Shown in pieces: positions 1-25,711 of a stretch of DNA of 64,000 bases (positions are counted from its first letter, which is position 1; each line of letters opens with the position of its first letter). A program made the position numbers and the translations under genes. The notes under the pieces are model-generated. The model worked only from the letters and a program-made list of their open reading frames with translations. It ran no database searches and was not told the origin of the DNA. The DNA is from Ophiocordyceps camponoti-saundersi (nom. inval.) (taxonomy: Eukaryota; Ascomycota; Sordariomycetes; Hypocreales; Ophiocordycipitaceae), in contig PDHQ01000014.1 of NCBI GenBank assembly GCA_003339415.1, positions 303,811-367,810 of the forward strand, given 5' to 3'.

Positions 1-1065
1 ATTTAAAATAAGTAGCTATACTTATTTACTCTCTATCTTATATACCGGATCCGGACTTATATATCCGCGATTAACCTTATTAATTATAACTTAGGCGTTA
101 TTTTAAATTACTATTATTTCTTTATTATTAGACCGATTTTCTTTAAAATCGCTATATATACTCGTTTTATTACTCCTTAATCGCTATCGCGATTATTTTC
201 TTATCGGTTAAACGATACCCTTATCCTAAGATAATCTCCTTTATTGTTTATTTTAATCGGGGAGATTACCTTAAAATATTATAAACCTATATTCGCGATA
301 TCTTTATTTTCTCTACGAACTTTTCCTTTTTAATATTTTTAACTTATCCGTTACTCTCTTTATTATTAAGGTAATATAATAAATTTATTAAAATATATAA
401 AAAGATAAAAAGTTAATAATACCCGAAGGTACTACTAACGAGATTAAACTAAGGAAAACCCCTAGCTAGGTAATTTAGCTAGTTTATTATAATAAGGGGG
501 CCCTTAATCCCCTTATTATAGCTACTAGCTAAGCTACCTAACTAAGGGCCTCCCTTATATAATAGTTCCCGAAAGTATATACTAAGGAGGTATTAAAAAT
601 CGAACCCGGCCTTATTAAGGGCTCGGCTATAAAAATAACCGCTTAACCGTTATCTAATATTTTCTAAGCTAAATAAACTAACTTATATACTTTACCGCTA
701 ATTAACCCTTAACTCTTTCCTTAATTATCGCGAGAAACCCTAATTATATTTTCTAGAAGGTAGGCATTACTTACCTAGTATAGAAGGCGGTATACGTAAC
801 GCCTACGGGGGTATATTAGAGGGCTAAAATAAGAGTAAGTTAGGCGTATATTTTTATTATCTTTTAAGGCATATAGTTATTATAGTAACGGCTCCGTAAC
901 CTAGGAAACGGAATTCCTATTAGGAAAAGGGCTATATCCGGGGTAATATATAGGATATAGGAATAAAGGCTTATTTATAAGGGTATCACGGTATAAGAGG
1001 CAGATACGGATAGTCTTTATTATATATATAAAGATAACGATATTTCCCTCTATTTTAGGAGGGTA
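1..1065. repeat. RIP-saturated AT-rich repeat relic
   Basis: I count only about six CpA or TpG dinucleotides in the first 1,080 bases, while TpA is everywhere and CpG persists (ccgg, gcg, acgt). Ordinary CpA/TpG density resumes sharply from about 1066. Loss of CpA on both strands is the signature of repeat-induced point mutation, so this was probably a transposon or other duplicated DNA. No reading frame survives, so the element type cannot be told. The relic continues past the left edge of the window. Confidence 0.85.
455..553. repeat. imperfect inverted repeat inside the RIP relic
   Basis: Bases 488-499 pair perfectly with 509-520 (TATAATAAGGGG against its complement) around an 8-9 base loop. 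The pairing continues imperfectly outwards, so that about 43 bases on each side (roughly 457-499 and 509-552) are recognisably inverted copies, including a shared TTAGCTAG core. It could be the centre of a palindromic element or two head-to-head terminal repeats. Mutation by RIP obscures the origin. Confidence 0.5.
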
Positions 1066-2476
1066 AGCATATTAATTAATGCAATTTGCACGCCTCCTCC
1101 TAGTCTGACAATATGCCTCCCTTCATCTTATCATATCGAGTCTTACTGTATTAGCATCACCCGAGTTAGTCTCTAGGAAAGCTTTTAATAGTAGAATGCT
1201 GTGATCCTCCTCGAGATTTCCATTACGTTTTGAGCTTAAGCCTATTATCACCTTGGGCGCGGGAGAAGGAAGCAAGAGCAGAAAAGGTTTCACATACATA
1301 CGTCGCCACTCTCTGTATTTATGAGTATAAACATACATATAGCGATCTCGATCTTGATTTTGCCGTCTTGGCTTTCGATCATCTGCCGTGACCAACTGTA
1401 TTGAAGTTTGAGGATTGAGTTCTGGCTGATCTTTTGCTACGAAGAAGAAGGGATGGTTTTCCGTCATGGTTCCTGAGATCCAAGTTGATATACATAGGTA
1501 TGTATGTATGTACATATGTATATCCCTACGTACATACGTATCATGTATGCGTATAAGCCGTCTCTGATTCCCAGCTGTGGTCTTGTTGCTTGTTGCTGAT
1601 AAATAAATATATCTTGATAGATGAAGCGGCTGAACTTGAAGTTTAACCTATTTATGCACACCTATGCATACATGTACATACATACATACCATATACCCCA
1701 GGGGAGTCTCGAAAGCGTTGTGAACAGCTTCTTCTTCTTGTTCTTCTTCAAGAGCTAAAGAGCGAGACTCGACCTCATCAGGCTTTCGGTTTGGAGCTTT
1801 AAATTTAGACAGGATTAAAAGGGTTTGAGACCCTTTCTAGTACGGCAATAAGTGGCCCAGGTTGAATCCCTTTGGGAAGGGCACGCGGTTCTATCTACAT
1901 AAACGGCATTGGTTGAGAGGGCGCTGTTGAGCCTGTTCAGAGGGCTTCGAGGAAGGCCGCTTTACATATGTAGGTCCCTTATAGCGTCTTGTCTCCCTCA
2001 CATGCCTTATTAGGCGAAGACGGTTCAGATTCGTTCGCAACCCTATGCCATTATGTATGCTTCTTAGTCGACCGGGGAAGATACTCGCAGCCTTTAACAT
2101 TAAAGCTGGAGCGTCGGTAGCTATCCTTGGCGGCCAACTATAAATCATCATGCTCATTTCAAAGCCGAGCGATGTAACATGATACAAGGCATGGAATGGT
2201 TCGTGAGGGTTATTCCAAGGGCTCGTACGACATATCCCTCACAGGTAGTTCTCTACATTGGTTCCATCATTTCATCCTGGCGAGTCATTGCCATTGACAG
2301 CTCAAAGGCTTTCGCGGCAATAGACAAACATACATATGTATATATGTAGAAGCAAAACCCTTTTTCGAGGTTCGATCAAAGTCCAACATCTCCAAACACC
2401 ATTCAACTATACACAAAACCCCCTTTCCTGGTCAACTGCCCTGTCTCTACGTAGTTGGATGCTCGTCCCTTCCTCA
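1066..2476. other. intergenic, no supported gene
   Basis: Normal base composition returns after the RIP relic. Several short open frames exist on the minus strand (for example 1123-1515 and 1891-2187) but none shows a recognisable domain, signal peptide or splice structure. A run of GTATGTATGTAC-like microsatellite lies near 1497-1520. I see no RNA gene. Confidence 0.5.
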
Positions 2477-5943: not shown

Positions 5944-7359
5944 TCAACCTGTAGATCCTACAACTGCTTCCTCTGTCTCGTCGACGTCACCTTCTTGATG
6001 CTGCTTCTGCTCACCCTCGGTCTTGTAGTTGAGAAAGGAAGCCAAGATGCTCAAGTCGTATACAGCCTTTAGGATGCCAGCCATAGAGAAGACGATCCAG
6101 ACGAGATGATTCTCGACAAAAACACCAGTAATGATGGGCCCCATACTCGAAACACCCGTCTTAACCACGTTGATGACGCCCATGAACGCCGTCCTCTCTT
6201 CCGGACGCAGAATATCTGCCAGAAAGGAGCTGCGCGGAGCAGCGTCCATGTATTGGGAACTGGCCCGAATGACAAGCAAGGTGATGGCTAAAGGTCGCGA
6301 GTCGGGGATGCCGAGGAAGGCCAGGGCAACGGCGGACGGGAGATGGCAGTAGACCATGGTCTTGACGTTTCCAAAACGACGAGCCAGGCTGGCGGCCACG
6401 AGGATGGAGACGGTCCCGAGGATGGAAATGGCGAAGAATAGAGAGCCGAGGTGTCCGGCCGGCATTGCGAACTTTCGTTTGAAGTAATCGGCCGTCCACG
6501 ACAGCGTAGCTAAGCTGGTGGCGAAGGCGTCGAGCCCGAAGAGCAGCGAGAGCGTGATGCAGAGACGACGGCGATCCGGGCTGAAGCGAGGTAGGAGGGA
6601 TGTCTTCTTCTTCGTCTTCCGCAAAAGGGGAGTATCCTCTTCGTCTGACACGACGGAAGCATCGTCGTGAACTTCGCATTCACTGCTCAGAGACAAGGTC
6701 ATGAGCAGCATGGTGAAGCCGACAGCAGCATAGAGGAAGAAGACGACGCGGTAAGCATCGCTCCGGTCCCAATGCTCTCGCATCTCAGCCGCGCTGACCA
6801 GCCAGCCACTAACGACCATACCCAGAGCAATACCAACGGTGCCAATCAAGTTATACCAGGCAAAGACATCGGCGCGGTCGTCGGCGGGCGTAAGCTGCGA
6901 GAGAGTCGACTCCTCGATAGCGCGAAAGGGTCCAATCTCATTGCCACAGGGACTGATGATACCGATGGTAGCGGCAGCAAGCAGAAGCCAAAAGTTGGCC
7001 GAGAGACCGAACATGATACCGCTGATACCCATGAGAAGAGAGCCAACGGTCAGCATCCTTCGACGACCTAACCCATCGGTCACGAGGCTGAGACCAAGAC
7101 TGATGACGACGTCGCCCACCAGCGTCAAGGCCATAAACAGCCCAATCCTACTATCGGAGATGCCGAGCGACGAGAGGTAGGAGACGAGGATGAGCGACGA
7201 GCCGCCATAGGCGAACATGCGGACGAAGCGTTGTAGGATTAACAGCTTCGTGTCGAGCGAGGATCGGAAGACGACGGTGAGGCCGAGCTCGCGGAAGAGG
7301 TGCTTTAGGAGGTGGATCGCGGGCCGGGCCGCCGTCTCGTCGGCTTGTTTACCGGACAT
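5944..7359 (-). CDS. major facilitator superfamily transporter
   Basis: Single-exon gene of 471 residues with about 12 hydrophobic segments in two halves separated by a polar central loop (near residues 225-255, rich in acidic and basic residues). The cytoplasmic motif A between segments 2 and 3 is present as DGLGRRR. This places it in the proton-driven MFS, in the fungal group of drug/solute permeases. Substrate cannot be told from the sequence. It sits about 0.9 kb beyond the 3' end of the diiron oxidase gene, on the same strand, so export of the product of the neighbouring cluster is a reasonable inference. Fully intronless, like that oxidase. Confidence 0.85.
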   Translation of the reverse strand: MSGKQADETAARPAIHLLKHLFRELGLTVVFRSSLDTKLLILQRFVRMFAYGGSSLILVSYLSSLGISDSRIGLFMALTLVGDVVISLGLSLVTDGLGRRRMLTVGSLLMGISGIMFGLSANFWLLLAAATIGIISPCGNEIGPFRAIEESTLSQLTPADDRADVFAWYNLIGTVGIALGMVVSGWLVSAAEMREHWDRSDAYRVVFFLYAAVGFTMLLMTLSLSSECEVHDDASVVSDEEDTPLLRKTKKKTSLLPRFSPDRRRLCITLSLLFGLDAFATSLATLSWTADYFKRKFAMPAGHLGSLFFAISILGTVSILVAASLARRFGNVKTMVYCHLPSAVALAFLGIPDSRPLAITLLVIRASSQYMDAAPRSSFLADILRPEERTAFMGVINVVKTGVSSMGPIITGVFVENHLVWIVFSMAGILKAVYDLSILASFLNYKTEGEQKQHQEGDVDETEEAVVGSTG

Positions 7360-8256: not shown

Positions 8257-10374
8257 TCAAAAGCATCGCTCAATCTCTCTTCGGCCGATGGCGTGACCCG
8301 TCCAAAACTCTCTGTACGCTTGCGTCTCCTCCTGGAGCCCAGCAACGCATACCGTCAGGTTTTCCTCCTCTCTCTCAGCGATGAGGCCCAAAGATGACCG
8401 GGACGATGGTGATAGCACATCCGACGAGGCCAACGAGTGGTGAAGCTGTACGAATGCCTGAGCTATACCCAACAGCAGCCATTGATACTGCTCTGGTCGC
8501 ATCGCCGCGGCAAGCATCGTCTCTGCGAAGGGCGATGGCCACCGTTCAAGCACCTGGTCCAAACCCTCTAGCGGAGGGGATAGCTGTTCTGTTCTGGAGA
8601 GAATCTCGAGCCCCACGTCTACGAGGTCGAGATGGTCTTCTCGCCTCATCTCATCCATGCCGGCCACCCCTGATGGCTCGGGGAGAAAGCCGTACTGAGC
8701 TCTCAGGAAGCGGACGATGGCGCAGCCGGTCATGTTGGCCACCCTCCACGGAACACATACAAACGACTCGAGAAGGCACATGTGTGAGAACCAGAGGGGA
8801 AGCAGCTTGTTAGCTTGCAGCCTTGAGGTGTCGATGACCAGTTGCTTCATGTCCGACGACGGTTCTAAAGAAAACCTAAAGTCGAACGAGGCTGGCATAA
8901 AGACTGGATAGTCGAAGGCTAGCCTCGGACATGCCGGTGTTGACTCGCTGACGTCGGTCCTGCCGGTGAAAGCCGTGAAAGTCTCGGCGCTCGGAGACAC
9001 CAGGCCGTCGATCCAGTCCCGGAGCACGGCCACCTCGCGATCAGTGAAGGCGCCAAACATGGAGCCGCCCCAAGAGAGCTGGTGAACGAGACGGCTCCGT
9101 CCGCTATTCCCCTTGTACACCCACGGCTTCGTATTTCCCAGACATCGCAAGAAATCCATCTGCCAGTCCGGCCGAGAGAAGGCGCAGGGGTCAAGCCAGG
9201 AGCTCAGCGACCGGCCGCCGAAACTCATGGGGCAATTCTCGTGGATTCGGTTGGCGGCCGCGGCCTTGGCCTCGAAGATGGTGAGAACATCGGCTACCAG
9301 GGGCGAGCTGGTCGGCGCGCTCATGTCCGATGGTAAGTTCTTGGACAGGACGAAGCCGGCTTGTACTCGCCTCCACGCCTGTTGCGCCGCCGCGGCTCCC
9401 TCGCCGTCTTGGACGCTGCGTAGATAGTCTGTGACGATCTGGCTCGCCATGGCAGTATGGCCTGAATCGACGTTGTCGATGGTGACGTGTAGGGTGAAGT
9501 AATAGGGGTCGAAGCCGACCTCTCGCAACTCCTTGGCCGTCACGAGCGTCTCCAACGTCAACATCTCAAAGTGCAAGTTGAATCCTAGGATTTCAGGAAG
9601 GAATTGATGCGGGAACAGAGAGACGAGGAGCTGGGCTACTGCCGATCGCCAAACACGAGCGTCGTCCATGCCCGGATGCTTGATGAAGTCGATGGAATCA
9701 GGCGCGGCCACAGGTGCAGCCACGAGCTTCAGGAGCTCGACGTATACATGGACATGATTCCTAGCCAGGTCTCCATCGCCAAGTTCCTCAGAGAGAATCT
9801 GCCATGCAGCTCTGGTGATGTGCCGATCGGCAAAGCGCGTCGTCGCCTTGTGCACGTGTCCGAGCCAGGCCCCGTCAACCAGCTTGACAGGGGCCATACG
9901 AACGAGCCAACGACGGGCATCGTCTGCCGTCCGGAACAGCTCTCGCGGCCGACCTGCCTTGCGACGGACGAGATACTGGTGCCAACCATTCGTCACCGCG
10001 TTCAGCTCAGCCCGGATGAAGTCCCCGAGGGCGGAGGCGGAGAAGTGCTCCAGCGAGAGGATGCTGCTCGGTTTCCGTTCCGACTGCAGGGCTTCTGAGA
10101 GGAAGGATAGGAGCATGGACTTGGCCTGGGGGAGTAAGTCGTCTGCATGGTCTTCGAGGTGATGCAGCTTGAAGTAGAGCTCTTTATACGGCTGGCATTC
10201 CCCCTCTCGATCCGTGGTTGACGATGATTTCGGATCCTTCTTCCGAGATGCCCCCTTTGCTCCCTCGGTATCGGTCCGGGAGCGGCAAGCCTGCTTTCTG
10301 CCTTGCTTCGTCTTTACCAAGATGGCACAAGCCAAGCAGATAAGGAGGAACCATAAGCCATGTCCTAGATCCAT
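8257..10374 (-). CDS. membrane-anchored haem-oxygenase-like diiron oxidase (HDO)
   Basis: Single-exon gene, 705 residues. Residues 7-21 form a hydrophobic anchor followed by a basic, polar linker to about residue 60, suggesting a signal-anchored enzyme. The central part (about 150-330) matches the iron-containing redox enzyme family (Haem_oxygenas_2, PF14518). It has the EELGDG segment with E196/E197 and H207, an acidic helix with E270 and E275, and the late FTLHVTIDxxxxGH segment with H296, D300 and H306. Known HDOs (SznF, UndA, BesC) use such Glu/His/Asp ligands for a two-iron site and perform N-oxygenation or oxidative C-C cleavage on amino-acid or fatty-acid substrates. The C-terminal ~350 residues include a GGSMFGAFT...DWI segment also found, to my knowledge, in bacterial relatives. 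It is divergent from the synthetase paralogue at 10989 with a 614-base shared upstream region. The exact ligand set was assigned by eye. Confidence 0.75.
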   Translation of the reverse strand: MDLGHGLWFLLICLACAILVKTKQGRKQACRSRTDTEGAKGASRKKDPKSSSTTDREGECQPYKELYFKLHHLEDHADDLLPQAKSMLLSFLSEALQSERKPSSILSLEHFSASALGDFIRAELNAVTNGWHQYLVRRKAGRPRELFRTADDARRWLVRMAPVKLVDGAWLGHVHKATTRFADRHITRAAWQILSEELGDGDLARNHVHVYVELLKLVAAPVAAPDSIDFIKHPGMDDARVWRSAVAQLLVSLFPHQFLPEILGFNLHFEMLTLETLVTAKELREVGFDPYYFTLHVTIDNVDSGHTAMASQIVTDYLRSVQDGEGAAAAQQAWRRVQAGFVLSKNLPSDMSAPTSSPLVADVLTIFEAKAAAANRIHENCPMSFGGRSLSSWLDPCAFSRPDWQMDFLRCLGNTKPWVYKGNSGRSRLVHQLSWGGSMFGAFTDREVAVLRDWIDGLVSPSAETFTAFTGRTDVSESTPACPRLAFDYPVFMPASFDFRFSLEPSSDMKQLVIDTSRLQANKLLPLWFSHMCLLESFVCVPWRVANMTGCAIVRFLRAQYGFLPEPSGVAGMDEMRREDHLDLVDVGLEILSRTEQLSPPLEGLDQVLERWPSPFAETMLAAAMRPEQYQWLLLGIAQAFVQLHHSLASSDVLSPSSRSSLGLIAEREEENLTVCVAGLQEETQAYREFWTGHAIGRREIERCF

Positions 10375-10988: not shown

Positions 10989-11170
10989 ATGGACTCTTCT
11001 CTCGGAGCTGAGGAACGATACTCGCTCATCACTCGTCGTCTCGAACTCCAGAACGGATGGGCCAGTCAGAAGCTCACCTCGCTCGTCAACCAGGGCAAAC
11101 CCATCAAATACCTCTGGTGTAAGCGAAGATGGCGTCCATTCAATTCGTCCGTCTCCATCCGCTGAAGTCT

Positions 11171-11224
<54 letters not shown>

Positions 11225-12650
11225 ACACCCACCACCCCCAACCCCCACACTGCCCACAGCCACTCCCCCGCACCACNNNNNNNNNNCCGACAACCCCGCC
11301 ACACCCTCCCTGCGTGACCCGACTGTCGCCCCGCCCTCCTTCCCCCCCCCCCCCCCTCCGGCCTCCCCCCCCCCCCCCCCCCCCCCTTTTGACAGCCACG
11401 ACGCCGACCGGAAAGCGTAAGCCAGAAACATACCCGTAGCAAGGGGGTAACAGTCTCGGTAACGACTCTATTCAGCTCATCTGGGCTACTTGATCCCCCT
11501 CATCAAGTTTGCCGACTTCATCCGAGCGGGCGGAGAGGTAACAACGTCTTTTGTCTTCCCCCCCCCCCCCCCCCAAAATATCCTCTTCCCTCTTCACACC
11601 CCTTCTTTCATCTTCCCGACGTTTGCCGTCAATGGCCGTGTTAAGGGTAGGGGGAAAACAAAATAGGTGACGATCGAATTCCTTGACACATACGGCCTCC
11701 TGATCAACTACAGGTTCCCATGGAACCAGGTTTGCCACCGCTCCAGGTACTACCGATGGCTGATCTTGGCCGCCCTCGAGGCCGTCGGAGTGCCCATGTC
11801 CCGGATGACCCTAGTGGACGCCTCTTCGTATCAGGGGACGTCCGAGTTCATGTTGGACTTTTGGAAGTTGTGCACTTTGTGCTCGCAGCAGGATGTGCGA
11901 GATACGGGCGCCGAGGTGGGCTCGTCTACGATGCTTAGCCCTTTGCTCACCCCGTTGCTACAGGAGTTGGCAGATGAGTATCTAGGCATCGATGTCGAGT
12001 TTGGAGGTTTAGATCAGGTACGTTGAACCCAGCCGTCTTGGCCTCATCAAGACGTGGGATAACTGGATAACTGACATACATGCCTTGTCAACCACAAGCG
12101 AGGCATCTTCAACCTGGGAGAACAGTTCCTCCCGGAGCTGGGATACGAGAAGCGCGTCCACGTCATGAACCAGATGCTACCGAGCCTGACGGGTGGCAAG
12201 ATGTCGTCGTCGCATGCAGACCACACCAAGCTAACGCTCCTCGACGACGAGTCCGCCATCAACCGCAAGGTGGCAGGCGCCTCGTGCCCGGCGGGGACGG
12301 TCGAGGGGAACGGAACGCTACCCATCGTCGAGCACATCCTGATGCCCATCAGCGAGCTGCGAGTTCGGGATGGAGGCAGAAGTCCCATGGCAGCTCAAGA
12401 AGCGACAGACGGGACGCTGTTCAGCGTTCACGGCCCTGTTTCCGACCCTGCTTCTCGACGCGACTACTGCAAGTACGAAGACCTGCAGCGGGATTACCTG
12501 GGGGGGATAATCGAGCCCGAGTCGCTCAAGGTGGCAGTGGCAAGAGCCGTCAATCAGGTTCTGGCCCCGATTCGCGACGCCTATGCTGGGAATGAGGCCT
12601 GGAGGGAAGCTGACCGAATGGGCTATCCCGAAGACTGGCCCGCTGCCTGA
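10989..12650 (+). CDS. tyrosyl-tRNA synthetase paralogue with altered amino-acid pocket
   Basis: Exons 10989-11118, 11396-11416 (21 bases), 11476-11537, 11667-12017 and 12099-12650 splice to 371 residues, the length of a eukaryotic TyrRS core. Class I signatures are intact: PTGKPHLGY (HIGH motif, 52-55) and GGKMSSS (222-226). The C-terminal anticodon-binding domain is also recognisable, ending in a YPE segment. By eye alignment to human TyrRS the tyrosine-binding residues Y39, Y166 and D173 are replaced by L42, T166 and A173, while Q170 and Q188 remain. The 'ADLHA' loop is LDTYG. Y39 and D173 recognise the tyrosine hydroxyl, so this is probably not the housekeeping enzyme. It may activate another amino acid, or be a resistance copy. 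Intron 1 contains poly-C runs and a 10-N gap, but the flanking exons join cleanly. Confidence 0.85.
11172..11386. other. assembly gap with flanking poly-C runs
   Basis: A run of 53 C (11172-11224) is followed by C/A-rich low complexity, 10 N at 11277-11286, then C runs at 11342-11356 and 11365-11386. The N block marks a scaffolding gap of unknown true size. Pure homopolymers this long next to a gap are typical of dark-cycle poly-G reads being assembled. The block falls inside intron 1 of the synthetase paralogue, so the protein is not affected. Confidence 0.85.
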
Positions 12651-12933: not shown

Positions 12934-13895
12934 ATGACTCAAGCTCAGCAACTCCCGAACGCGTCCTCAGTGACGACGGTGAACCTCGGCCGGCTGGCGG
13001 CCCGAGACGATGGCGAGATGGAAAAGCTGCGTAAAGCGGCCTCTTATCCCGGCTACTTCTACCTCGATCTTGGGGACGTGGCCGAGCAGACGCGAAGGAT
13101 CTACGCTGTGGCCGATCGCTACTTTGACCAGCCGGCTGAGGTCAAGATGAGAGACGCGCGAGAGGGACAGCCGGCGTCGAGCGACAGAGGGTATGCATAT
13201 ACATGTTTTGAGGACCATGGAGACAACAACTGACAGGGTTGTGATGGCAACTCATAGCTTCAAGTCTTGCGTGACGGACGAGTCCTTCGAGGTGAGTGAC
13301 ACGGAACAGCCAGACGATGACAGTCTCTAAAGAACTGGCTGTTCGATAGATGTCAACCGACGAGATGCGCCAGGGAACGCTTCATCTACCCGCAGCTATA
13401 TCAGAGCAAGAGGCAGCCGTAAACAGCTTCCACGAGCGGTGCCACTCGGCAACGATGGTCGTGCTGGAGCGACTAGCCGACGCGTTGAGCATGCCACTAA
13501 CACAGCATCACGACGGCGACGCAGAGCAGACGAGCGAGAGCGGGCTAAAGCTCATCGCCGAGCCGGCTGTGGCCCGGGCAGCGGACGTAGTGGAGAACAA
13601 GCACCGAGACAGCGGGACGCTGACGATGCTCTTCTACGACGCCTGGAGCCTTCACATCTGCCTGTCGGGCGAGGGCGAGGAGACGCAGCGGTGGACGTTT
13701 GTGCCGCCTCCGCCGGATGGCTGCGCTCTTGTTCACGGGGCTTCGACTCTCTGTCGTATGACGGACGGCAAGCTGTGTGCTCCGCTGCATCGGGTGACGC
13801 AGCCGGGGGACGGCGCGGCGAAGCGCTTCTTCCTGTCGTATTTCCTGCGGCCGGACCATCGGATGAGCCTCGCTGGGCCAGTTTGTGCCGCTTGA
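12934..13895 (+). CDS. 2-oxoglutarate/Fe(II)-dependent oxygenase (IPNS-like)
   Basis: Exons 12934-13190, 13258-13291 and 13350-13895 give 278 residues. The N-terminal part carries a short DIOX_N-like region with an YPGYFYL segment. The double-stranded beta-helix core supplies H182 and D184 (HRD) and H244 (APLHRV), the Fe(II) facial triad. R256 occupies the 2-oxoglutarate arginine position, but the usual RxS is RFF here. The protein is shorter than the ~330-350 residues usual for this fungal group. Such enzymes hydroxylate, desaturate or cyclise small molecules. The start codon is about 280 bases beyond the synthetase stop on the same strand, making a cluster tailoring role likely. Substrate unknown. 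Confidence 0.75.
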
Positions 13896-14132: not shown

Positions 14133-15175
14133 ATGGAGGAGGCAGACACGTCCCTCCGTCCTCCCTTGCTCGTTCTAGGCCTCAGCCGAACCGGCGGCAC
14201 CTGTAAGACAAAAGCTATCCACGGCGTAAGAGAAAGAGATCGGTCTGCTGACTGGCTGAGCCACGACGCAGCACTGTCGCGAGCCCTCGGTCTGCTAGGA
14301 TATGAACGTCTATACGACCTGGACGACATTGCCAATGGCGAGCCCGAGCAGGCCGACTTCTGGCTGCGGGCCGTGCGCCGGAAGCTGGACGGCGAAGAGG
14401 GCTTTGACCGGACTGAGATCGAGGCGCTGTTGAAGGGTTACGACGTATGTGAGTCGCTATCAAGAGCAGACAAGAAGACTGAGACGTGTAAAGGGAGTGC
14501 GCAACGTGCCGGGAGCTGCCTTTGCCGCGGAGCTTATACGATGCTTCCCCGAGAGCAAGGTGATTCTACCGACACGCGATCCGGACTCGTGGCACGCGTA
14601 CGTCGGAGAAGAAAACACAAGCCATGTCCGAATGAATACAGGCATGTCCGAATATATACAGACACGACTGACGAACGAGAGCGGACAGATCATGCCTGAA
14701 AACAGTCCACCGACGCGCCTATGACCCGATCCTCCAAGCCCTGTCTCTATTCGACAGCGGAACGCGCACATACATGACGCTTCTCCAAGGCCTACAGCAG
14801 ACACTCTACGGCGGCGACTTCAACCACCGAGGCAAAGCCGCCTTATCCGAGCACGAAGCCCTTCTCCGAGAGCGAGTCCCTGCGCCGCAGCTGCTCGAGT
14901 ACCGCGTCACCGAAGGATGGAAGCCTCTATGCGCCTTCCTGGGCCGCCACCAACCACCCGCCGACTTCCCGCGCAGCAACGACGGCGATGCTTTCTGGCG
15001 CGCTTGTCGGGAGAGAGACGCGCGGGTTGCGAGGAAGAGGGTTGGGGAGGCGTTGCCCGTTTTGGTTGTGCTTGTTGGTGTTGTGGCTTGGGCGATGGGA
15101 AGTGGTGGCTTTGCTTTGATGGTGGTGGTGGTGGTGATGGGGATGGCGGTTGGTGCCTTTTCACGTGTTTCTTGA
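14133..15175 (+). CDS. Sulfotransfer_4 family P-loop protein with C-terminal anchor
   Basis: Exons 14133-14202, 14272-14444, 14494-14597 and 14689-15175 splice to 277 residues. The start contains the nucleotide/PAPS-type loop LGLSRTGGTSLSRAL (residues 15-29), and exon 3 holds the VILPTRDPDSW segment that follows the conserved PGAAFAAEL. Exon 4 restores SCLKTVHRR after the tryptophan motif, which is how the acceptor was chosen. The C-terminus ends in a hydrophobic stretch of about 25 residues, a membrane anchor also seen in fungal relatives. These proteins (PF17784) are abundant in fungal clusters, and true sulfotransferase activity is proven for few. It lies 237 bases after the oxygenase gene on the same strand. 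The canonical first-loop proline is serine here. Confidence 0.75.
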
Positions 15176-15825
15176 GCTTCGTCGAGACGGGACACGTTGT
15201 TTATATATTGATTGACGGCTCCTGATTCATATGGACTTGCATATGTATGTACTTGCATTATACCGGTATAATTGCCGTCTAACAAGCCGATCTGAAGTTG
15301 AGCAGTCAAATATGACATAACCTGATCATCTCTGTGCGGACGTCTGGATACTGGGTTGACTTGACGTGAGACTCGTGCCCGGTTTACTGAGCTGTAATGG
15401 CGCTGGGTACCTATATATAACCAAGTAATGCCTTGTTCTAGCACATACGGCCATACCTACTAGGAAACACGGGATCCCGTCCGCTCTCCCCTAGTTAAAC
15501 TGGTAAGGGGCAGATTAGTAGTTGGGTCGGTGACGACCAGCGAACACCGGCTGCTGTATGTTTTTTTCCTCGTCTCTAGGAGACTTTCTTTTTGCAGTTG
15601 TATTCGTATCAGCTCTTGCAATGAGTTCAGCTTCAGCTTCGAGGCTAGGAAGTACGAGATGGAAGACGAAAGGATTACTTGTGTACGGATTAGAGAGAGA
15701 TACTTATAGAAACATATGTAGTTACTTCATCACGAATTGAGGCGGCTGGAGGGATAGTCTCTATCTTATGGCAGCATACTTAGAACAGTTAATGTTAATA
15801 ACCCATGCAAGCCTGTGATTTGCTA
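15176..15825. other. intergenic between the two cluster-like regions
   Basis: It separates the convergent sulfotransferase-type and P450 genes. No coding or RNA gene is supported. Confidence 0.5.
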
Positions 15826-17514
15826 TTATCCGAGTAACGTATCAAAACCATCCCGTATCTTACTCGAATCGCCTTCGTCTTCAAAGTCTTTGACGCCGTC
15901 ACCCCTGACGAGTCGCAACATCTCTTCGCTCCGCGGAACAATCTCACAAGGAAAATCGACCACATGCCCTAGAGCTCCGGGCCGGACCTTGAACTCGGCG
16001 TCGAGCGCCACACCAAACCGATCAACCGCCTTGTTAATGTTGAAAGTGGCGAGCATCTGGGCAACGACTAGAAAGACGTTTGTATCGGCCACGTAACGTC
16101 CGGGGCATTTTCTCCTTCCGAAGCCGAATGCAACAGCTTTCGGATCTGGCTCGTTTCTCGGCTCTCGATATCGCTCGGGGTCGAAGCGTGAGGGCTCGGC
16201 GTATATGTCGGGATCGTGCGATAACCACCATAGCGAAGCGAATACGATGGCTCCCTTTGGGATATCATATTTGTCGTACGAGATATCCTCACAAGTCGTG
16301 TGGGCGAATCCCAGCGGCGTGGCTGGGGACATGCGTAGCGTCTCTTTGACGATGCCTTCGATGTACGGCAGCCTCCCTCTGTCCTTTACTTGTGGTAGCC
16401 GATCTGGGCCTATCACCGTGTCGATTTCCACCTGTGCCTTGCGCTGTACGTCGGGGAACATGACCATGGCCCAGACAAAGGTCTTCAGAGTGATTACCGT
16501 GGTAGCCGTGCCGCCGAGGAACATCATAGCAGCCGTATACTTGATGTCATGCTCGTTTTCACCGCTCAGACTAGACGGGCCGGAGTCGCCGCTCAAGTCT
16601 TGAACAGACTTGGATACATAGCAAGGTCGATACGTTCCCGCATCCATTTGTCGCCGAGTAAATAGGTACGGTATATCTGCGACTGCCCGGTTGACCTCTC
16701 GCCACTTCTTTGCCGTGTCCTTGAATCCGGCGCCTGGAAATCCAGCTGGTAGGTATTTGAGGGCCGGAACAGCGTCAACCATCCAGGCGAGTGGAACTGC
16801 GGCCAGTGCCATGTTGTTGGACACGCGCTCCATCAAGTCTATCAGCGGATCGTTGTTGTTCATTCCGATAGAATAGCCGTAGATTAGTCTTAGGAGGGTA
16901 GATCCGGCAGTTCTGAGGGGTGAAAGCGAAGTCAGTTACCGTATAAACCCTCACTCGTAGCAGCAGACTTTCTCCATAGAGAGCATAAGGAAGGAAACTC
17001 ACGCTCGCAAACACTCAGTGAGAGCCGTTGGCTGATTCATCAGTCGTAGTAGCAACCGTCGCACCTCCACAGCCTGAATCTCATCGAACTGAGTGCGCGA
17101 AGACGTCGTACAAAGCTGCTGTTCAAGAAGGCGACGACGACGCCGACAGCCATGGTCATACCGACTTGATACGAAATCGTCGAAACGGCAGAGCGTAAAG
17201 GCGAATTCCATCCTCGGTCTGTCTGAAGACTTGATCGAGTGCTTCTCAAGCAGCTGGAAAGCTATCTGCTTATCGTGGACGGCGACGATGGTCTGGCCCA
17301 TGATTGTGATGGAGGTTATTGGTCCATAGAGGGTTCTGTGTTTCAGCCAGTGCTGGAATTCGGGGATTCCTTTTGGTGGGAGGTCTTTGATGTTTCCTAT
17401 TATTGGCCACGGTTTGGGGCCGGGGGGCAGAAGGAGTTTCTTTCGGGTGCGGTACTGATGGATGGAGTATAGCAGTGCCAGGAGGCCGAGGGCTGTCAGT
17501 GTTAGGCTGGTCAT
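15826..17514 (-). CDS. cytochrome P450 monooxygenase
   Basis: Exons 17514-17003 and 16912-15826 on the minus strand give 532 residues. The N-terminus is a membrane anchor followed by the proline-rich hinge LLPPGPKPWPIIGN. Further motifs are the I-helix FLGGTATTV, the K-helix ETLR (ExxR), FDPERY (PERF region) and the haem-binding loop FGFGRRKCPGR with the axial cysteine. In the I-helix the usual acidic residue before the threonines is alanine, as in a subset of fungal P450s. The sequence style matches the O-methylsterigmatocystin oxidoreductase-like group. It lies on the same strand as the DxDD cyclase gene 0.7 kb away, so oxidation of the terpene product is likely. Exact CYP family not assigned. 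Confidence 0.9.
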
Positions 17515-18230
17515 GCTAGGTTGGCAGTGAGCGATTGCATCAGTTAGGTAGCAAGATGATGTAGATGGAATATGGGAGGTTCGAAAGACTCTTGTATGTA
17601 TTTCCTTGACTGAGAGATACGAATTACGTCGTTGAGACCAATCGAGTGGTCTATGTAGGTCTAGTTCAAGGTACGGATAAAAGGCCTGCATCTCGCTTCT
17701 CCCACCTTGATCGTACCCTCCGGATCCCCCTCCGGATCCCCCCTCCGGATAGTATGTACAAGACGGTGACTTGCCTGGACAAGGGACATGGCTTAAAACG
17801 CGCTAACCATGGTAATCCTTGCGATCCGTACAACGCATACATTGCTAGTAGGTCAATACTCATTGGGTAGTGGAAACTCCCAGTCAATCGAGGAGGCAGG
17901 CAGGTAGGTAGGCCAGTAAGCAGGCCGCGCAGCATCTAGTCAGTCAGGCCATGTGCAGAGGGGAAGTCAGCCAGTAGGTAGATCGGTCAGGATGGCAGGC
18001 AGGCGGGCTTAGGCAGTCAAGGACATGCGTTGATCGTCCAAGTCATTCTGTTCCGTCCAGGCCATGGTCTGAAGCGAATCTCAACGTTGCCAGGCGAACT
18101 GGTATAACGGGGGCCAACTTACCTACTCTTTATTCAACACCTACCTGCCAAGAAGGTTTACTCTATCGTAGATGCAACGGACTCATTCAGTCGTGCCTGT
18201 CCCTCGACTGCTGCACTCATCATGCGTGCC
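17515..18230. promoter_or_regulatory. P450 upstream region with a triple CTCCGGAT repeat
   Basis: Three copies of CTCCGGAT lie at 17718-17725, 17730-17737 and 17743-17750, about 205-235 bases before the minus-strand P450 start. The spacing is 12-13 bases with C-rich spacers. The CGG core resembles sites of fungal Zn2Cys6 regulators, but no such regulator gene lies in the window. Farther on (17890-18010) is a GCAGG/TAGG-rich degenerate repeat. Confidence 0.45.
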
Positions 18231-19376
18231 TCAGCACTTGGCAATACTCGTCACGACTTCACGCTCCATTCTCCCTATAGCACTCAAAGCAAAAGCCGTA
18301 GAATAGGATTCCGAACCTCCATAAGCACCGGACTTATTCCATTTATAAACAACACCAACCGGGAAAGATCCATCCGACTGCTGTAGATCTAGAAGCGCGT
18401 TGAATATCGTCACGCACCACATCACGACCTGAGACGACTTTTCCGAAACAGAAGGAGAGTTGAGTCTGAGGTTGAGAGCGGTTAAAAGGAGAGCAGAAAG
18501 GTTCAACGCCTCGGACGGGCTTGGCTCGCTGTGGGCCATTTCTTCAAGTTCGGAGACGACGATGCCTTCGAATTGATGGCCGAGCAGTTCACGGGCGTGA
18601 TGACTTTGCGCGAGAAGTCGGCTGAGGAAGAAATAGACGACGAAGCGGTTAATGTAATACGACATGTAGGGCAGCGTCGTATCTCCGATTCGATGCCGTC
18701 TCAGGGCATCGAGAGAGGTGCGGATGAGCTCGAGCGAGGGTCGTACTTCCGGCTGTGTTTCCAATCCCGCAGCTGACAGCAGCGTCAAGAAGTTGATCAG
18801 ACAGCCGAGGCATACTTTCGGTACGTGAAGGTATCGCTCATGCACGATTTTCCGCCCAGGTTCGACTGGAAGCCAAGTGGCGAAGACGCCTTCTGAGGTG
18901 AGCATGACGGAGCGCAGCGCCATCTGAGCCTGAGAGCGTAACTCCTCGAGCTCCAGGTCCCCGGTCCAGAAGAGAGCCAGCAGGGGACAGCTGGTATCGT
19001 CGATATCGTCCGGGAACAGATCAACTCCGACGTCGTCTTCAAAGATGAAGAAGTTCCAGTTACCGTTCGGACGTCGACTGGATAAAAGGACGTTTTTCAG
19101 CGCGGCGAGCACTTCGATGCCTATGCCTTCGTCTCGGACCAGCGGAAGCAACACGGCGGAGTCGTACGATGTCGGGACGTGGTTGACGATTGGCGCTGAG
19201 GTTCCGGGGATATGCGCCTGTGCTGTGAATCCGTACTTGGCGGAGCATTGCATGCTGAGGAAGCGGAGTGAGGATCGACGGATCTGTGCTATCTTGCCTA
19301 GGCTGAAGCTGAAGTCTTCGTAGTGTGCCTTGAAGATGGGGAAGCTCTCTCTCATGAAGACTTCGTATGGATACAT
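18231..19376 (-). CDS. stand-alone DxDD terpene cyclase-like protein (class II type)
   Basis: Single-exon gene, 381 residues. The sequence PDDIDDTS at 122-129 contains a DxDD motif (D124, D126, D127) in the context of class II terpene cyclases, where the central aspartate protonates a double bond or epoxide. QW-like repeats are visible as RPNGNW just before the motif and QQSDGSF near the C-terminus, typical of alpha/alpha-barrel prenyltransferase/squalene-cyclase domains. It is shorter than a full beta-gamma class II diterpene cyclase (~500 residues), so it may be a reduced or divergent form, or lack an unrecognised 5' exon. It is divergently paired with the class I synthase at 20105. No isoprenoid diphosphate synthase was seen nearby. 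Confidence 0.65.
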   Translation of the reverse strand: MYPYEVFMRESFPIFKAHYEDFSFSLGKIAQIRRSSLRFLSMQCSAKYGFTAQAHIPGTSAPIVNHVPTSYDSAVLLPLVRDEGIGIEVLAALKNVLLSSRRPNGNWNFFIFEDDVGVDLFPDDIDDTSCPLLALFWTGDLELEELRSQAQMALRSVMLTSEGVFATWLPVEPGRKIVHERYLHVPKVCLGCLINFLTLLSAAGLETQPEVRPSLELIRTSLDALRRHRIGDTTLPYMSYYINRFVVYFFLSRLLAQSHHARELLGHQFEGIVVSELEEMAHSEPSPSEALNLSALLLTALNLRLNSPSVSEKSSQVVMWCVTIFNALLDLQQSDGSFPVGVVYKWNKSGAYGGSESYSTAFALSAIGRMEREVVTSIAKC

Positions 19377-20104
19377 TTTGATGCTGCTTATTGTGACTGG
19401 ACTGGGGACATGCTTTTCTTTCTAGCGAGTTGATGGATCAGTCTCATGGATCATACGAAGACGTGTGTGAGTTGGTGATGTATGTGCTCTTCTTACTGCG
19501 CTACTCCGTACATATAAGTCAAAGATGCGGGACGGCCGCATTAGCTACTAGCTAGGTAGCTACGTGAAAACGATTGCCGGATCGAATAGGTCCGAGACAT
19601 ACATCCGGCAGCCACTCCGGCAGCCCCTCCGGAAGCTCCTCCGGCACCGGCAGCTACTCCGGCGGCTACTAGTAGCTTACCTACCTACCTATCTACACCG
19701 ACAGTTCTGCAGCGTCCCTCTTTCACCACTCATCTTCATCATCACTCATTGTACCCGTAGCCTGTCGTAGGGACTAAGCTCGTGTTCCTACGCTCTCGTC
19801 GCGAAAGAGCCTAACATGGATTCTTTCCTTCAACGTCATCTTGCTCTAGCTTGTGCACACATATCAGCATACGCATACACGGAGCGTGGTAGTATGTAGG
19901 GAGTATGCCAGCATTCATACCTACCACACCTTGGTACCCTAAATATCCTTTCAAGTTGAAGTTGCTGCCGCACCCAAACATGTATGTATGGCTCAACTAA
20001 CCTAGTAATGACGTCTCGATCCCAAGAGTTCATCGCTACCCGAGGCCAAGAAGTGCGCATAGCCATCTCTACCTCAAATTCTTTCAATTCAATGCCAAAC
20101 CATC
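19377..20104. promoter_or_regulatory. bidirectional promoter of the class II-like and class I terpene genes
   Basis: The two terpene genes diverge from this 728-base region. It contains CTCCGG at 19615-19620, 19627-19632, 19639-19644 and 19657-19662 (spacing 12, 12, 18) plus ATCCGG at 19603-19608. The same hexamer is repeated before the P450 gene, which suggests shared control. The stretch also reads like a Pro/Ala repeat in one frame, so origin as a coding fragment cannot be excluded. Confidence 0.5.
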
Positions 20105-21022
20105 ATGGCATCCAAGATTGATCCTCAAGTCTTTTCATCGTGGCGTTGTCACAAGCCCACGATACATCCAGATGTCGAAAGATTAAGAGAGGAAGCCACC
20201 GAATATTGGAACATATGGAGAGACGACATGTTTAAGCTGGAGGATGGAGATCCCGATTACGTCGCCTCAGGCTTGGTCGCTGCCTACCTTTGTCCCGGAG
20301 CCGAGTACGAAAGAGCAAAAGCATACGTCTTCTTCAACATATTCTGGGGTGTTTTCGACGACGTGCTGGACTCTGTAAACGATTCAGCAGCTGCCAGATA
20401 CCTCACCGAAACCGCCATCGGCATCGTCGACGGTCTGGACACGGATGACAGAAGGTTTCTACCCTTTGTCGACCTTTGGAATTCATCATTCTGGGACGGA
20501 CACAGCCGCAATGCCTTTCGAGAAGCAACTCGCAAGTACCTCGAAAACGCTCAGAAACTAGTCGAGCTGGAAACAGAACAGCGCATCCTCTCCGTTCCAG
20601 ACTACCTTTCTCTACGACAATGGGACGTGGCGATCGAGCAGGCTTTCTGCATGCTGCTATACGTCTATGAGAAGGACGAATGCCTACAGCAGTTCGACCG
20701 CTTTGCCGCCTTCTTCAGCGCCGCTGGAAAGTATTTCGCCTTTCTATTCGACTTGCTCGGTTTCAAGGGGAAAAGACGTCAGGTTAAGAAGTTCACCAAT
20801 GTCGTGGAGATTCTGAAGAGGCGAGAGCAGTGCGGTTACGATCAGGCTGTCGACTTGGTTGTTCAGCAGCTGTTGGTTTACAAAGATGATGTTAGGCACG
20901 AGCTTGGTGAGTTGCAGTTCGAGGTTCCGGAAGCGGCGGAACTCTTCGAGTGCGCCATTGGCGGTATCTTTCTCTGGCTTGATTCGGTGAAGAAGAAACG
21001 TTATGCGCAATGCAGAGAATGA
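20105..21022 (+). CDS. class I terpene synthase with degenerate NSE motif
   Basis: Single-exon gene of 305 residues, the size of a fungal alpha-domain terpene synthase. The metal-binding DDVLD (85-89) follows WGVF, and R171 in YLSLRQW sits about 45 residues before the second metal site, as the pyrophosphate sensor does. The C-terminal RY pair is R299-Y300. The second site should read NDxxSxxKE but reads FDLLGFKGK (215-223), so the Asn, Ser and Glu/Asp metal ligands appear to be Phe, Gly and Lys. This would cripple one Mg2+ site, hinting at altered chemistry or dependence on its class II partner. Product cannot be predicted. Confidence 0.75.
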   Translation: MASKIDPQVFSSWRCHKPTIHPDVERLREEATEYWNIWRDDMFKLEDGDPDYVASGLVAAYLCPGAEYERAKAYVFFNIFWGVFDDVLDSVNDSAAARYLTETAIGIVDGLDTDDRRFLPFVDLWNSSFWDGHSRNAFREATRKYLENAQKLVELETEQRILSVPDYLSLRQWDVAIEQAFCMLLYVYEKDECLQQFDRFAAFFSAAGKYFAFLFDLLGFKGKRRQVKKFTNVVEILKRREQCGYDQAVDLVVQQLLVYKDDVRHELGELQFEVPEAAELFECAIGGIFLWLDSVKKKRYAQCRE

Positions 21023-23794: not shown

Positions 23795-24685
23795 TTAGCC
23801 ATATGTCCCAGCGGGTCGGGAAGACCGCGTCTGTACCGAGCGTCTAATCATCGTCGTTCCCGGAACAGGGCGGAAAAACCGACGCGGGTTAGCAGGCTGA
23901 GTCCAATTCGGGCGACAGAATTCGTTGCAATCGTGCTGGCTGAAGAAGGAGCTGATGCCATGGGGGCCGAGATCCGTCACGCCGTACTCGCGGTTCCGAG
24001 ACAGGATGACGGGGTCGGAGAGGACCACCGCGTGCCGGTAGATGCCGCCCTGAAGATCGCACAAGACGTAGTTGCCGCCCGACAGGTGGTAGCTGAAATG
24101 GCTCAGGGCCTGCATGACCTCCCCCCACGCCTCCGAATCGTCGTTCCAGCCGGTGTTGCTGTTGAATTTCTGGTAATTATGGATAAAGGGCTCGCAGAGA
24201 GCTCTTTGACCCGCCCTGTCGTCATCACTGTCGTCATCACTGTCGTCGTCGAATCGCCATACTCCGGGCACGTTGAACTTGACAGTCTTGTTAACAATGT
24301 TCATCTGATTGAAGACGTTGACGATCTCCAACGCCTTATCGACGGCCTTGATATCGAGAGTGAAGTAATCGTCGGAAAAGACTGCGCCCGTCTTAAACCA
24401 CTTGAGGACACATGCTTGGCCTCGGCGAAGACCTGAAGTGTACTCTGCCTTGGCTACCCATCGGAAAGAACCCTGAGCAAAGGGATTTTCAAGGTCGTAA
24501 AGGTCGAACTCGGCGCGATTGGAGTTGTTATATCTCCCACTGTTCGACTGCGTGACGGACTGGGCGTCGGAGTGGTGGCCGTGAACGCAGCTCACGCATC
24601 GTGACAGACCATCGCCCTTATCCCATTGGTTTGCCGTGAAGGAGGTGCGAGGGAGGAAGCGGTTGCAATCAGCACAGGTCCGCAT
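23795..24685 (-). CDS. Stc1-like zinc finger fused to an alpha-kinase domain
   Basis: The frame is open from 24739; the ATG at 24685 is preferred because it places CADC (C4, C7) at the very N-terminus. The finger continues to CVSC (C30, C33) in the pattern of Stc1-type modules, which in fission yeast link RNAi to chromatin. Residues ~70-270 resemble the atypical alpha-kinase (MHCK/eEF2K) catalytic domain: VLKWFKTG for the ATP-binding lysine, CEPFIHNYQKF, the ALSHFSYHLSGG helix, VLCDLQGG, LSDPVI, and the C-terminal zinc-site segment HDCNEFC. It has an Asp/Ser run (DDDSDDDSDDD). The model is about 296 residues. The substrate and whether the finger binds RNA, DNA or protein are unknown. Confidence 0.75.
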   Translation of the reverse strand: MRTCADCNRFLPRTSFTANQWDKGDGLSRCVSCVHGHHSDAQSVTQSNSGRYNNSNRAEFDLYDLENPFAQGSFRWVAKAEYTSGLRRGQACVLKWFKTGAVFSDDYFTLDIKAVDKALEIVNVFNQMNIVNKTVKFNVPGVWRFDDDSDDDSDDDRAGQRALCEPFIHNYQKFNSNTGWNDDSEAWGEVMQALSHFSYHLSGGNYVLCDLQGGIYRHAVVLSDPVILSRNREYGVTDLGPHGISSFFSQHDCNEFCRPNWTQPANPRRFFRPVPGTTMIRRSVQTRSSRPAGTYG

Positions 24686-25711
24686 AGCGGCTCTGTGAGC
24701 ACTAAGATGCGTTGTATGTATATGCCAAAGCTTGAGCACAGAGAGTATGTCTGTCTGTCAAGCCTGACAAGGGAGACACCCAGTCGTGCTTAAGGATGAT
24801 GATCTGTGTAGAAAAGGTGGAAGGGGGAAGGGGGAAGGGGGAGTGCCAGTTAGTATGCCCCGTGCCGTACCAGTCGTGCCTTCCGTTGCAGGCCCTGATC
24901 TTGTCTGCCCACCAAGCGACAAGGCGAAGACTCAGAAGTCGATGCTTATTTAAAACCTGAAATGAAAATCGGGAAATGAAGAAAAAAATTTCATCGTGGT
25001 GTATGAAACCTTGCGTCTAGAGTTTTGGTGGCTGCGGCAAACGCCTTCATAGGGGGGGGGGGGGGCGTCTGTTGGACTGGCGTGTATCACCTTCCTACCT
25101 ACCGGGATATGGCGTGAGGGCGCTACGGAAACGCCATGAGAGCTCTGACAGGTTCCGGTTAATCAGCTCGGGAGATGGCTTGAAATCCAACAACAGGGAT
25201 AGATGGTATGCAGCAAATCTGCCACCCCGGATATTGGCGCCGCCTGCAAGCGAACAAACATGTCATATCATGGGAAAACGCAGCAGGGGTTCTGCCATCT
25301 CGCTAAAGGATATCCATATGTACAAGAGTTTCATATTACTAGGGCCATGACCTGCGAGTTTAGACGAGGGCCGGGATGGGCTTCGTCTAACGATGCCACC
25401 TCCTTATTACTGATATCATACATGTAGCCATTACCGGGCCGTCAATGACCTTTGTAGGCTTATTGCTCAGTTTTCCGTCTCATCCAGCTTCTCTCGGTAA
25501 AGAAAATGACGATTACCATCACCAAGGTTGTTGCTGTAGCGTCAACAACGTCATCTATAAGGGAATGATGTTGATAACAACTTGTTGTGATCTCATTCGA
25601 GAAACGACAAGAAAAAAGACATTCATCATCACGGCTAGGCAAGACGTATATCTACCTAGACAATCTCACTCTCATCCATATCATCGTCATATACCTAGGT
25701 AGGTAGACAAC
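24686..25711. other. intergenic, no supported gene
   Basis: It contains a GAAGGGGG microsatellite (24818-24842) and a 14-base G run (25052-25065). Short plus-strand frames (25072-25702) have no recognisable content. Confidence 0.5.

What the first reader, a model, noticed from the sequence alone, without database searches (positions are those of the whole stretch)
10989..12650. Tyrosyl-tRNA synthetase paralogue with three rebuilt tyrosine-pocket residues
Seen: intact HLGY and KMSSS, full catalytic plus anticodon-binding length, but L42, T166 and A173 where human TyrRS has Y39, Y166 and D173. Known: Y39 and D173 contact the tyrosine hydroxyl, and laboratory redesign of TyrRS to non-natural amino acids changes the same two positions (Y32 and D158 in the Methanocaldococcus enzyme). 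Inference: this natural copy activates something other than tyrosine, such as a hydrophobic or O-modified aromatic amino acid.
Basis: partly seen in the sequence, partly recalled or inferred. Interest (0 to 1): 0.92.

Follow-up and report, generated by a model that had tools for sequence, protein, structure and literature searches.

The report
Repurposed fungal tyrosyl-tRNA synthetase, biosynthetic cluster
An ant-infecting fungus carries, besides its normal tyrosyl-tRNA synthetase, a second copy whose amino-acid pocket has been rebuilt; relatives of this altered copy occur in other fungi, often beside the same oxygenase genes, so it probably activates a different building block for a small molecule rather than tyrosine for protein synthesis.

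Summary
A five-exon, 371-aa TyrRS-like gene lies at 10989-12650, with HLGY and KMSSS intact and L42/T166/A173 on human Y39/Y166/D173. The genome (Ophiocordyceps camponoti-saundersi) has a separate, normal cytosolic TyrRS on another contig. The copy belongs to a family: 20 of the 120 listed homologues share its signature, and window plus 14 of them form one clade (100/99) against 28 reference TyrRSs. Of 11 tyrosine-shell columns invariant in 21 reference TyrRSs, 7 are lost in the family, against 9 of 62 elsewhere. Conserved lysines near the active site are lost too (K190 to G in 20 of 20 rows), while the ATP motifs stay. All 15 proteins scored fall below both NCBIfam TyrRS cut-offs; all 8 controls pass. 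In the window the gene sits between a haem-oxygenase-like diiron oxygenase (closest folds: N-oxygenases RohS, HrmI, SznF) and a 2-oxoglutarate oxygenase; 11 of 20 relatives can be linked to one or both. Best reading: a TyrRS-derived adenylate-forming ligase in a small biosynthetic pathway, not charging tyrosine and possibly tRNA-independent, as bacterial MetRS-like PyrN is. Substrate and product are unknown.

The parts
10989..12650 (+). TyrRS-like gene, five exons (10989-11118, 11396-11416, 11476-11537, 11667-12017, 12099-12650), 371 aa
   Evidence: Splicing; 90% full-length match to P0001; PDB TyrRS matches; AlphaFold2 model of P0001, pLDDT 92.3, best Foldseek match yeast TyrRS 2dlc
11396..11416 (+). 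mini-exon carrying most of the TTPTGK stretch just before the HLGY motif
   Evidence: ag/gt borders; needed for the frame and matched by relatives
11119..11395 (+). intron 1 with long C runs and a 10-base N gap
   Evidence: Read; 10 N in the whole window
12186..12212 (+). region coding the LTGGKMSSS signature (approximate ends)
   Evidence: Sequence, alignment
8257..10374 (-). haem-oxygenase-like diiron oxygenase (PF14518), 705 aa, predicted N-terminal helix 3-29; divergent from the TyrRS-like gene, 614 bases apart
12934..13895 (+). 2OG-Fe(II) oxygenase, three exons (12934-13190, 13258-13291, 13350-13895), 278 aa, 283 bases downstream
   Evidence: Spliced protein identical to P0241, CP533_2287; PF14226 and PF03171 pieces
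14133..15190 (+). Sulfotransfer_4 gene, multi-exon, not modelled; end approximate; possible further member of the cluster
   Evidence: PF17784 E 4.2e-07 on 14133-14699; P0268 of Purpureocillium carries PF17784 together with similarity to the 2OG protein
5944..7359 (-). MFS transporter; membership in the cluster not tested
   Evidence: PF07690 E 1.7e-32

Best explanation
A TyrRS-derived, class Ic adenylate-forming enzyme recruited into a small, conserved fungal biosynthetic pathway. It uses ATP to activate an amino acid (or related acid) other than tyrosine in a rebuilt pocket and passes the acyl group to a pathway partner rather than supplying Tyr-tRNA(Tyr). The divergent diiron oxygenase next door probably oxidises a nitrogen of an amino acid or amine, and the 2OG oxygenase acts before or after the ligation. 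Shown here: gene, residue changes, kept ATP motifs, one family, shared contigs. Inferred: non-tyrosine substrate (about 0.9), biosynthetic role (about 0.8), no tRNA (about 0.6), N-oxygenase role of the neighbour (about 0.6).
For: Tyrosine-shell columns lost preferentially, 7 of 11 against 9 of 62; ATP motif residues kept (H49 in every row with a residue; K222, M223, S224, S226, Q170, D187, R189 in 20 of 20); K190 to G in 20 of 20, K154 lost in 20 of 20, residues 155-157 deleted; one clade 100/99; 15 of 15 below and 8 of 8 controls above both NCBIfam TyrRS cut-offs; a separate normal TyrRS in the genome; partners linked for 11 of 20 relatives; partner HDOs concentrated in one part of the HDO tree, 15 of 16; HDO fold closest to N-oxygenases; precedent of tRNA-independent MetRS-like PyrN beside a Lys N-hydroxylase (PMC8664883 passages).
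Against: The anticodon-binding C-terminal domain is retained, which a tRNA-independent ligase would not need. R189 is kept in 20 of 20. No substrate, product or activity is known. The HDO has no Foldseek match at E below 0.001 and a shared fold does not show nitrogen oxidation. P0025 keeps D173 and carries a GNAT domain instead.
Confidence: 0.68

Rival explanations
1. tRNA-dependent version: the enzyme still charges a tRNA, but with an amino acid other than tyrosine, and the aminoacyl-tRNA feeds the pathway or, less likely, translation.
For: C-terminal domain and R189 retained; aminoacyl-tRNA-using pathways are known (PMC12945691 and PMC2922099 passages).
Against: K190, K154 and residues 155-157, invariant or nearly so in 21 references, are lost in 20 of 20 rows; no tRNA gene in the window by ARAGORN with bacterial settings, which may miss intron-bearing tRNAs.
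Confidence: 0.18
2. Self-resistance copy: a drug-insensitive TyrRS protecting the fungus from a TyrRS inhibitor made by the cluster.
For: Duplicated synthetases in clusters can be resistance targets; Lys-tRNA synthetase for cladosporin is listed in PMC10320164 (passages).
Against: A resistance copy must still bind tyrosine and charge tRNA(Tyr), but both contact sets are rebuilt and the scores fall below TyrRS cut-offs.
Confidence: 0.06
3. Pseudoenzyme with a structural or regulatory role.
For: 16 of 73 invariant columns lost; one of them, G41, is a site where a human mutant is inactive (PMC5094542 passages).
Against: ATP-motif residues are kept across the family, which a dead enzyme would not need.
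Confidence: 0.05
4. Ordinary TyrRS that has drifted but still charges tyrosine.
For: Source annotations call several of these proteins tyrosine--tRNA ligase.
Against: Y39, Y166 and D173 are all gone although all 21 references keep them, changes are shared across fungal classes, and a normal TyrRS is present.
Confidence: 0.03

Closest known systems
Eukaryotic cytosolic tyrosyl-tRNA synthetase (yeast 2DLC, human 1N3L)
   Same: Fold, length, HIGH and KMSKS-type motifs, C-terminal domain; best sequence and structure matches
   Different: Seven of 11 invariant tyrosine-shell residues, K190, K154 and residues 155-157 changed; below TyrRS equivalog cut-offs
Bacterial MetRS-like enzymes of N-N bond pathways (PyrN, Spb40; PMC2922099, PMC8664883)
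   Same: A class I synthetase paralogue beside a nitrogen-oxidising enzyme and a second metal enzyme; PyrN works without tRNA (passages)
   Different: Derived from MetRS, not TyrRS; bacterial; partner is a Lys/Orn N-hydroxylase and a cupin, not a diiron oxygenase and a 2OG oxygenase. Whether the fungal enzyme ligates an N-hydroxy compound is untested
Engineered M. jannaschii TyrRS variants for unnatural amino acids
   Same: Positions 32 and 158 (human 39 and 173) are changed there too (PMC11723616 passages); many such variants among the Foldseek hits
   Different: Natural and shared by diverse fungi; also changes 41, 72, 74, 77 and 166 and basic residues near the active site
Cyclodipeptide synthases
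   Same: Class Ic synthetase-like fold turned to small-molecule synthesis (PMC12945691 and PMC2922099 passages)
   Different: Here the ATP motifs and the C-terminal domain are intact and the protein is a close TyrRS relative
HDO N-oxygenases RohS, HrmI, SznF
   Same: Fold of the neighbouring PF14518 protein over about residues 55-354
   Different: 12-14% identity, about 350 extra C-terminal residues, predicted N-terminal membrane-type helix

Membership tests
Tyrosine--tRNA ligase | Score above curated TyrRS equivalog cut-offs NF006330 (220) and TIGR00234 (113.8) | tested here: not met
   Window 144.1 and 62.6; 15 of 15 family proteins below both; 8 of 8 controls above both. The models are built for bacterial and archaeal naming, but the fungal and other eukaryotic controls pass
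Tyrosine--tRNA ligase | Tyrosine-contact residues Y39, Y166, D173 | tested here: not met
   L, T, A in the window; 21 of 21 references have Y, Y, D
Tyrosine--tRNA ligase | HIGH and KMSKS-type motifs | tested here: met
   HLGY 52-55 and KMSSS 222-226
Tyrosine--tRNA ligase | Conserved basic residues beside the active site (K147, K154, K190) | tested here: not met
   Window D150, S157, G190. That these residues bind tRNA is recalled, from no call
Tyrosine--tRNA ligase | Anticodon-reading Asp (human D308) | tested here: inconclusive
   Window S330, but the own housekeeping TyrRS has L there
Tyrosine--tRNA ligase | Charges tRNA(Tyr) with tyrosine | not testable with these tools
   Needs an assay
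Self-resistance target copy | Retains the housekeeping function of the target | tested here: inconclusive
   Substrate contacts lost, which argues against it; activity not measured
MetRS-like N-N bond pathway (PyrN type) | MetRS-derived catalytic domain | tested here: not met
   TyrRS-type: Pfam PF00579 places and TyrRS best hits
MetRS-like N-N bond pathway (PyrN type) | Adjacent N-hydroxylase | tested here: inconclusive
   A diiron oxygenase whose fold is closest to N-oxygenases is adjacent; its reaction is unknown
MetRS-like N-N bond pathway (PyrN type) | tRNA-independent ligation | not testable with these tools
   Needs an assay
Cyclodipeptide synthase | Loss of ATP motifs (recalled; partly in PMC2922099 passages) | tested here: not met
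   HIGH and KMSSS are intact
HDO (PF14518), neighbour | PF14518 above its cut-off | tested here: met
   118.7 bits against 28.9

The most novel reading that the evidence does not exclude
A fungal, TyrRS-derived, tRNA-independent ligase that joins an activated amino acid to an N-hydroxylated amino acid or amine made by the neighbouring diiron N-oxygenase, the 2OG oxygenase completing an N-N, N-O-acyl or hydroxamate product: a eukaryotic, independently evolved counterpart of the bacterial MetRS-like and Lys N-hydroxylase pathway.
Probability: 0.22. Interest if true: 0.9.

Novelty: new variant of a known kind. Interest (0 to 1): 0.72.

Why it matters
It would be a natural redesign of the TyrRS pocket, the pocket that laboratories redesign for genetic code expansion, with about 20 diverse sequences to learn from. 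It would also mark a type of fungal biosynthetic cluster that can be read as a housekeeping or resistance gene, since source annotations call several of these proteins tyrosine--tRNA ligase. My searches of the open-licence paper library did not list a description of it; that library lacks most subscription journals.

Tried and rejected
Loss of the anticodon-reading Asp (human D308) as a sign of tRNA independence: dropped, because the own housekeeping TyrRS has L there. Net charge: the family is somewhat more acidic but overlaps the references; not used. Recent duplicate of the own TyrRS: not supported, 39.5% identity to C77, and a clade of family plus C77 plus yeast is rejected (AU p 0.002). 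In the tree the family and 18 mostly basidiomycete TyrRSs (17 named, P0018 unnamed) lie on one side of a branch against yeast, C77, human and seven others (100/99); only C77 and yeast stand for ascomycete housekeeping TyrRS and C77 has a long branch, so a basidiomycete origin is a lead only. Sequence relatives of the HDO in the PDB: none at E up to 1; the profile search gave three matches at E 0.049 to 1.4, of which one (9pfw, E 0.25) is an iron-containing redox enzyme. Acceptor-stem contacts of M. jannaschii TyrRS: no passage found, and the search listed no paper with them, so their role is recalled. Resistance-mining paper PMC6517689: the searched words (tRNA synthetase, tRNA ligase, tyrosyl, alliaceus) do not occur. 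HDO review PMC13108848: no fungal HDO in the passages searched. The ant-fungus genome paper PMC5624889: no 'tRNA synthetase' in its main text.

Rows dropped: P0012, P0014, P0015, P0016 and P0019 (fragments or doubtful gene models) were left out of the tree, and P0052 out of the 20-row alignment. The HDO tree used 73 of 120 listed proteins, FastTree only. Lists are capped: 120 of 144 TyrRS hits, 120 of 1543 HDO hits, about 8000 candidates scored in each; all 60 2OG hits were listed.

Full report
WHAT IS THERE. The window is G000:C55:303811-367810 of a 45.7 Mb assembly. The spliced 2OG oxygenase at 12934-13895 is 100% identical to CP533_2287 of Ophiocordyceps camponoti-saundersi, on a contig of 367,810 bases, the length of C55, so the source is that ant-infecting fungus. 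The TyrRS-like gene has five exons and 371 codons. Intron 1 holds long C runs and a 10-base N gap. No annotated TyrRS-like protein of this species is among the 120 listed hits, perhaps because of that intron. The orthologue of O. polyrhachis-furcata matches at 90% over its full length.

In an alignment of 20 family rows (window plus 19), 14 cytosolic TyrRSs and 7 other TyrRSs, L42, T166 and A173 sit on human Y39, Y166 and D173. All 21 references have Y, Y and D. The family keeps Y39 in 0 of 15 rows with a residue, Y166 in 0 of 20 (T in 18, S and C once each) and D173 in 1 of 20. The genome has a normal cytosolic TyrRS on C77, and one match each for the window gene and for PF14518.

MORE THAN THREE RESIDUES. 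PMC11723616 (passages) lists 14 residues within 5 A of the tyrosine position in an M. jannaschii TyrRS variant. By spacing I map them to human 39-43, 72, 74, 77, 152, 166, 170, 173, 188 and 191. Of 73 columns invariant in all 21 references, 16 are lost in the family (residue kept in at most 15% of rows, my threshold): 7 of 11 in the shell, 9 of 62 elsewhere, Fisher p=0.0014. L72 becomes E or D in 11 of 18 rows with a residue, and H77 becomes Y in 18 of 18. Three human neuropathy alleles, G41R, D81I and 153-156delVKQV, lie on sites changed here. For G41R and the deletion, the text of PMC5094542 says that amino acids are no longer activated, while its table gives G41R '-' and the deletion '+' for aminoacylation, against '+++' for E196K; D81I was not determined (passages). 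One family member, P0002, keeps G41 and one, P0017, keeps D81. What stays: H49 and Y52 in every row with a residue, and K222, M223, S224, S226, Q170, Q188, D187 and R189 in 20 of 20.

tRNA. K190 is G in 20 of 20 family rows, and in 0 of the other 100 listed hits. K154 is lost in 20 of 20, residues 155-157 are deleted, and K147 is D or E in 15 of 20. Recalled, from no call: equivalent M. jannaschii residues (Arg132, Lys175) contact the acceptor stem. The C-terminal domain and R189 remain, so tRNA independence is a lean and not a result.

ONE FAMILY. In a tree of 43 proteins the 15 family rows form one side of a branch against 28 references, support 100/99. Fifteen of 15 family proteins scored, the window's included, lie below both NCBIfam tyrosine--tRNA ligase cut-offs; 8 of 8 controls lie above. 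The AlphaFold2 model of P0001 (pLDDT 92.3) matches yeast TyrRS 2dlc best. Family members come from Ophiocordyceps, Purpureocillium, Hirsutella, Aspergillus, Paecilomyces, Arthroderma, Phlyctema and the lichen genera Endocarpon and Lasallia, plus unnamed metagenomes.

COMPANY. In the window a PF14518 diiron oxygenase (HDO) is divergent, 614 bases away, and a 2OG oxygenase follows 283 bases downstream. Twenty of the 120 listed hits carry the signature (P0001-P0017, P0019, P0025, P0052). Strongest: O. unilateralis XA68_17342, 17343, 17344 (2OG, TyrRS-like, HDO), P. variotii DTO027B5_5297 and 5298, and contigs of 15.6 to 240 kb. Weak: P0005 and P0006, which rest only on contigs of 13 and 6 Mb. Nine of 20 have no listed partner, and Endocarpon's genes lie on contigs of different length. 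Seven further contig lengths are shared by an HDO and a 2OG without a listed TyrRS-like protein (132553, 3723072, 13641, 29282, 8373, 5567, 50895). Of 16 HDOs sharing a contig length with a TyrRS-like or 2OG protein, 15 fall in one 31-row part of the HDO tree and 1 (Lasallia) in the other 42 rows. A sulfotransferase gene follows in the window; Purpureocillium P0268 combines that domain with 2OG similarity in one gene model.

HOW IT MAY WORK. Bacterial MetRS paralogues cluster with a Lys N6-hydroxylase and a cupin (PMC2922099, outline and passages). In PyrN the MetRS-like domain joins glutamate to N6-hydroxylysine without tRNA, and the cupin then makes an N-N bond (PMC8664883 passages). A fungal TyrRS paralogue beside a likely N-oxygenase and a second iron oxygenase suggests that similar logic arose independently. 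Shown: anatomy, residue changes, linkage. Inferred: substrate not tyrosine (about 0.9), biosynthetic role (about 0.8), no tRNA (about 0.6), N-hydroxy acceptor (about 0.2).

LIMITS. The paper searches listed no description of this cluster, in a library that lacks most subscription journals.

Noticed in passing
window 15826-21022: A P450 gene (15826-17691, -; PF00067) and a terpene synthase-like gene (20105-21022, +; PF19086) lie beside the trio; 18231-19376 (-) has no Pfam hit but looks terpene-cyclase-like by eye. They may be a second cluster.
   Followed up: partly
window 1-2000: GC falls to 36% against 50-60% in the rest of the window, an AT-rich stretch bordering the gene-rich part.
   Followed up: no
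window 23795-24739: Alpha-kinase domain on the minus strand (PF02816, E 7.2e-52).
   Followed up: no
window 27018-28004: Open frame of a probably secreted protein without a Pfam hit; by eye its start recalls the enterotoxin-like proteins reported in ant-infecting Ophiocordyceps (recalled; PMC5624889 names enterotoxins in its title).
   Followed up: no
P0025 (Phlyctema vagabunda): The most divergent family member keeps D173 and is annotated as a 610-aa fusion with a GNAT domain (PF13302), possibly a transferase partner or a gene-model error.
   Followed up: no
human TyrRS positions 41, 81, 153-156: Sites of three human CMT alleles coincide with columns changed in this natural family, so the family could inform what those sites do.
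   Followed up: partly
TyrRS tree: The family lies with 18 mostly basidiomycete TyrRSs rather than with yeast and the own housekeeping copy; an old lateral transfer or an old paralogue, with thin ascomycete sampling.
   Followed up: partly
window 8257-10374: The HDO has a predicted N-terminal helix (3-29) that reads like a membrane anchor and about 350 C-terminal residues beyond the HDO fold.
   Followed up: no
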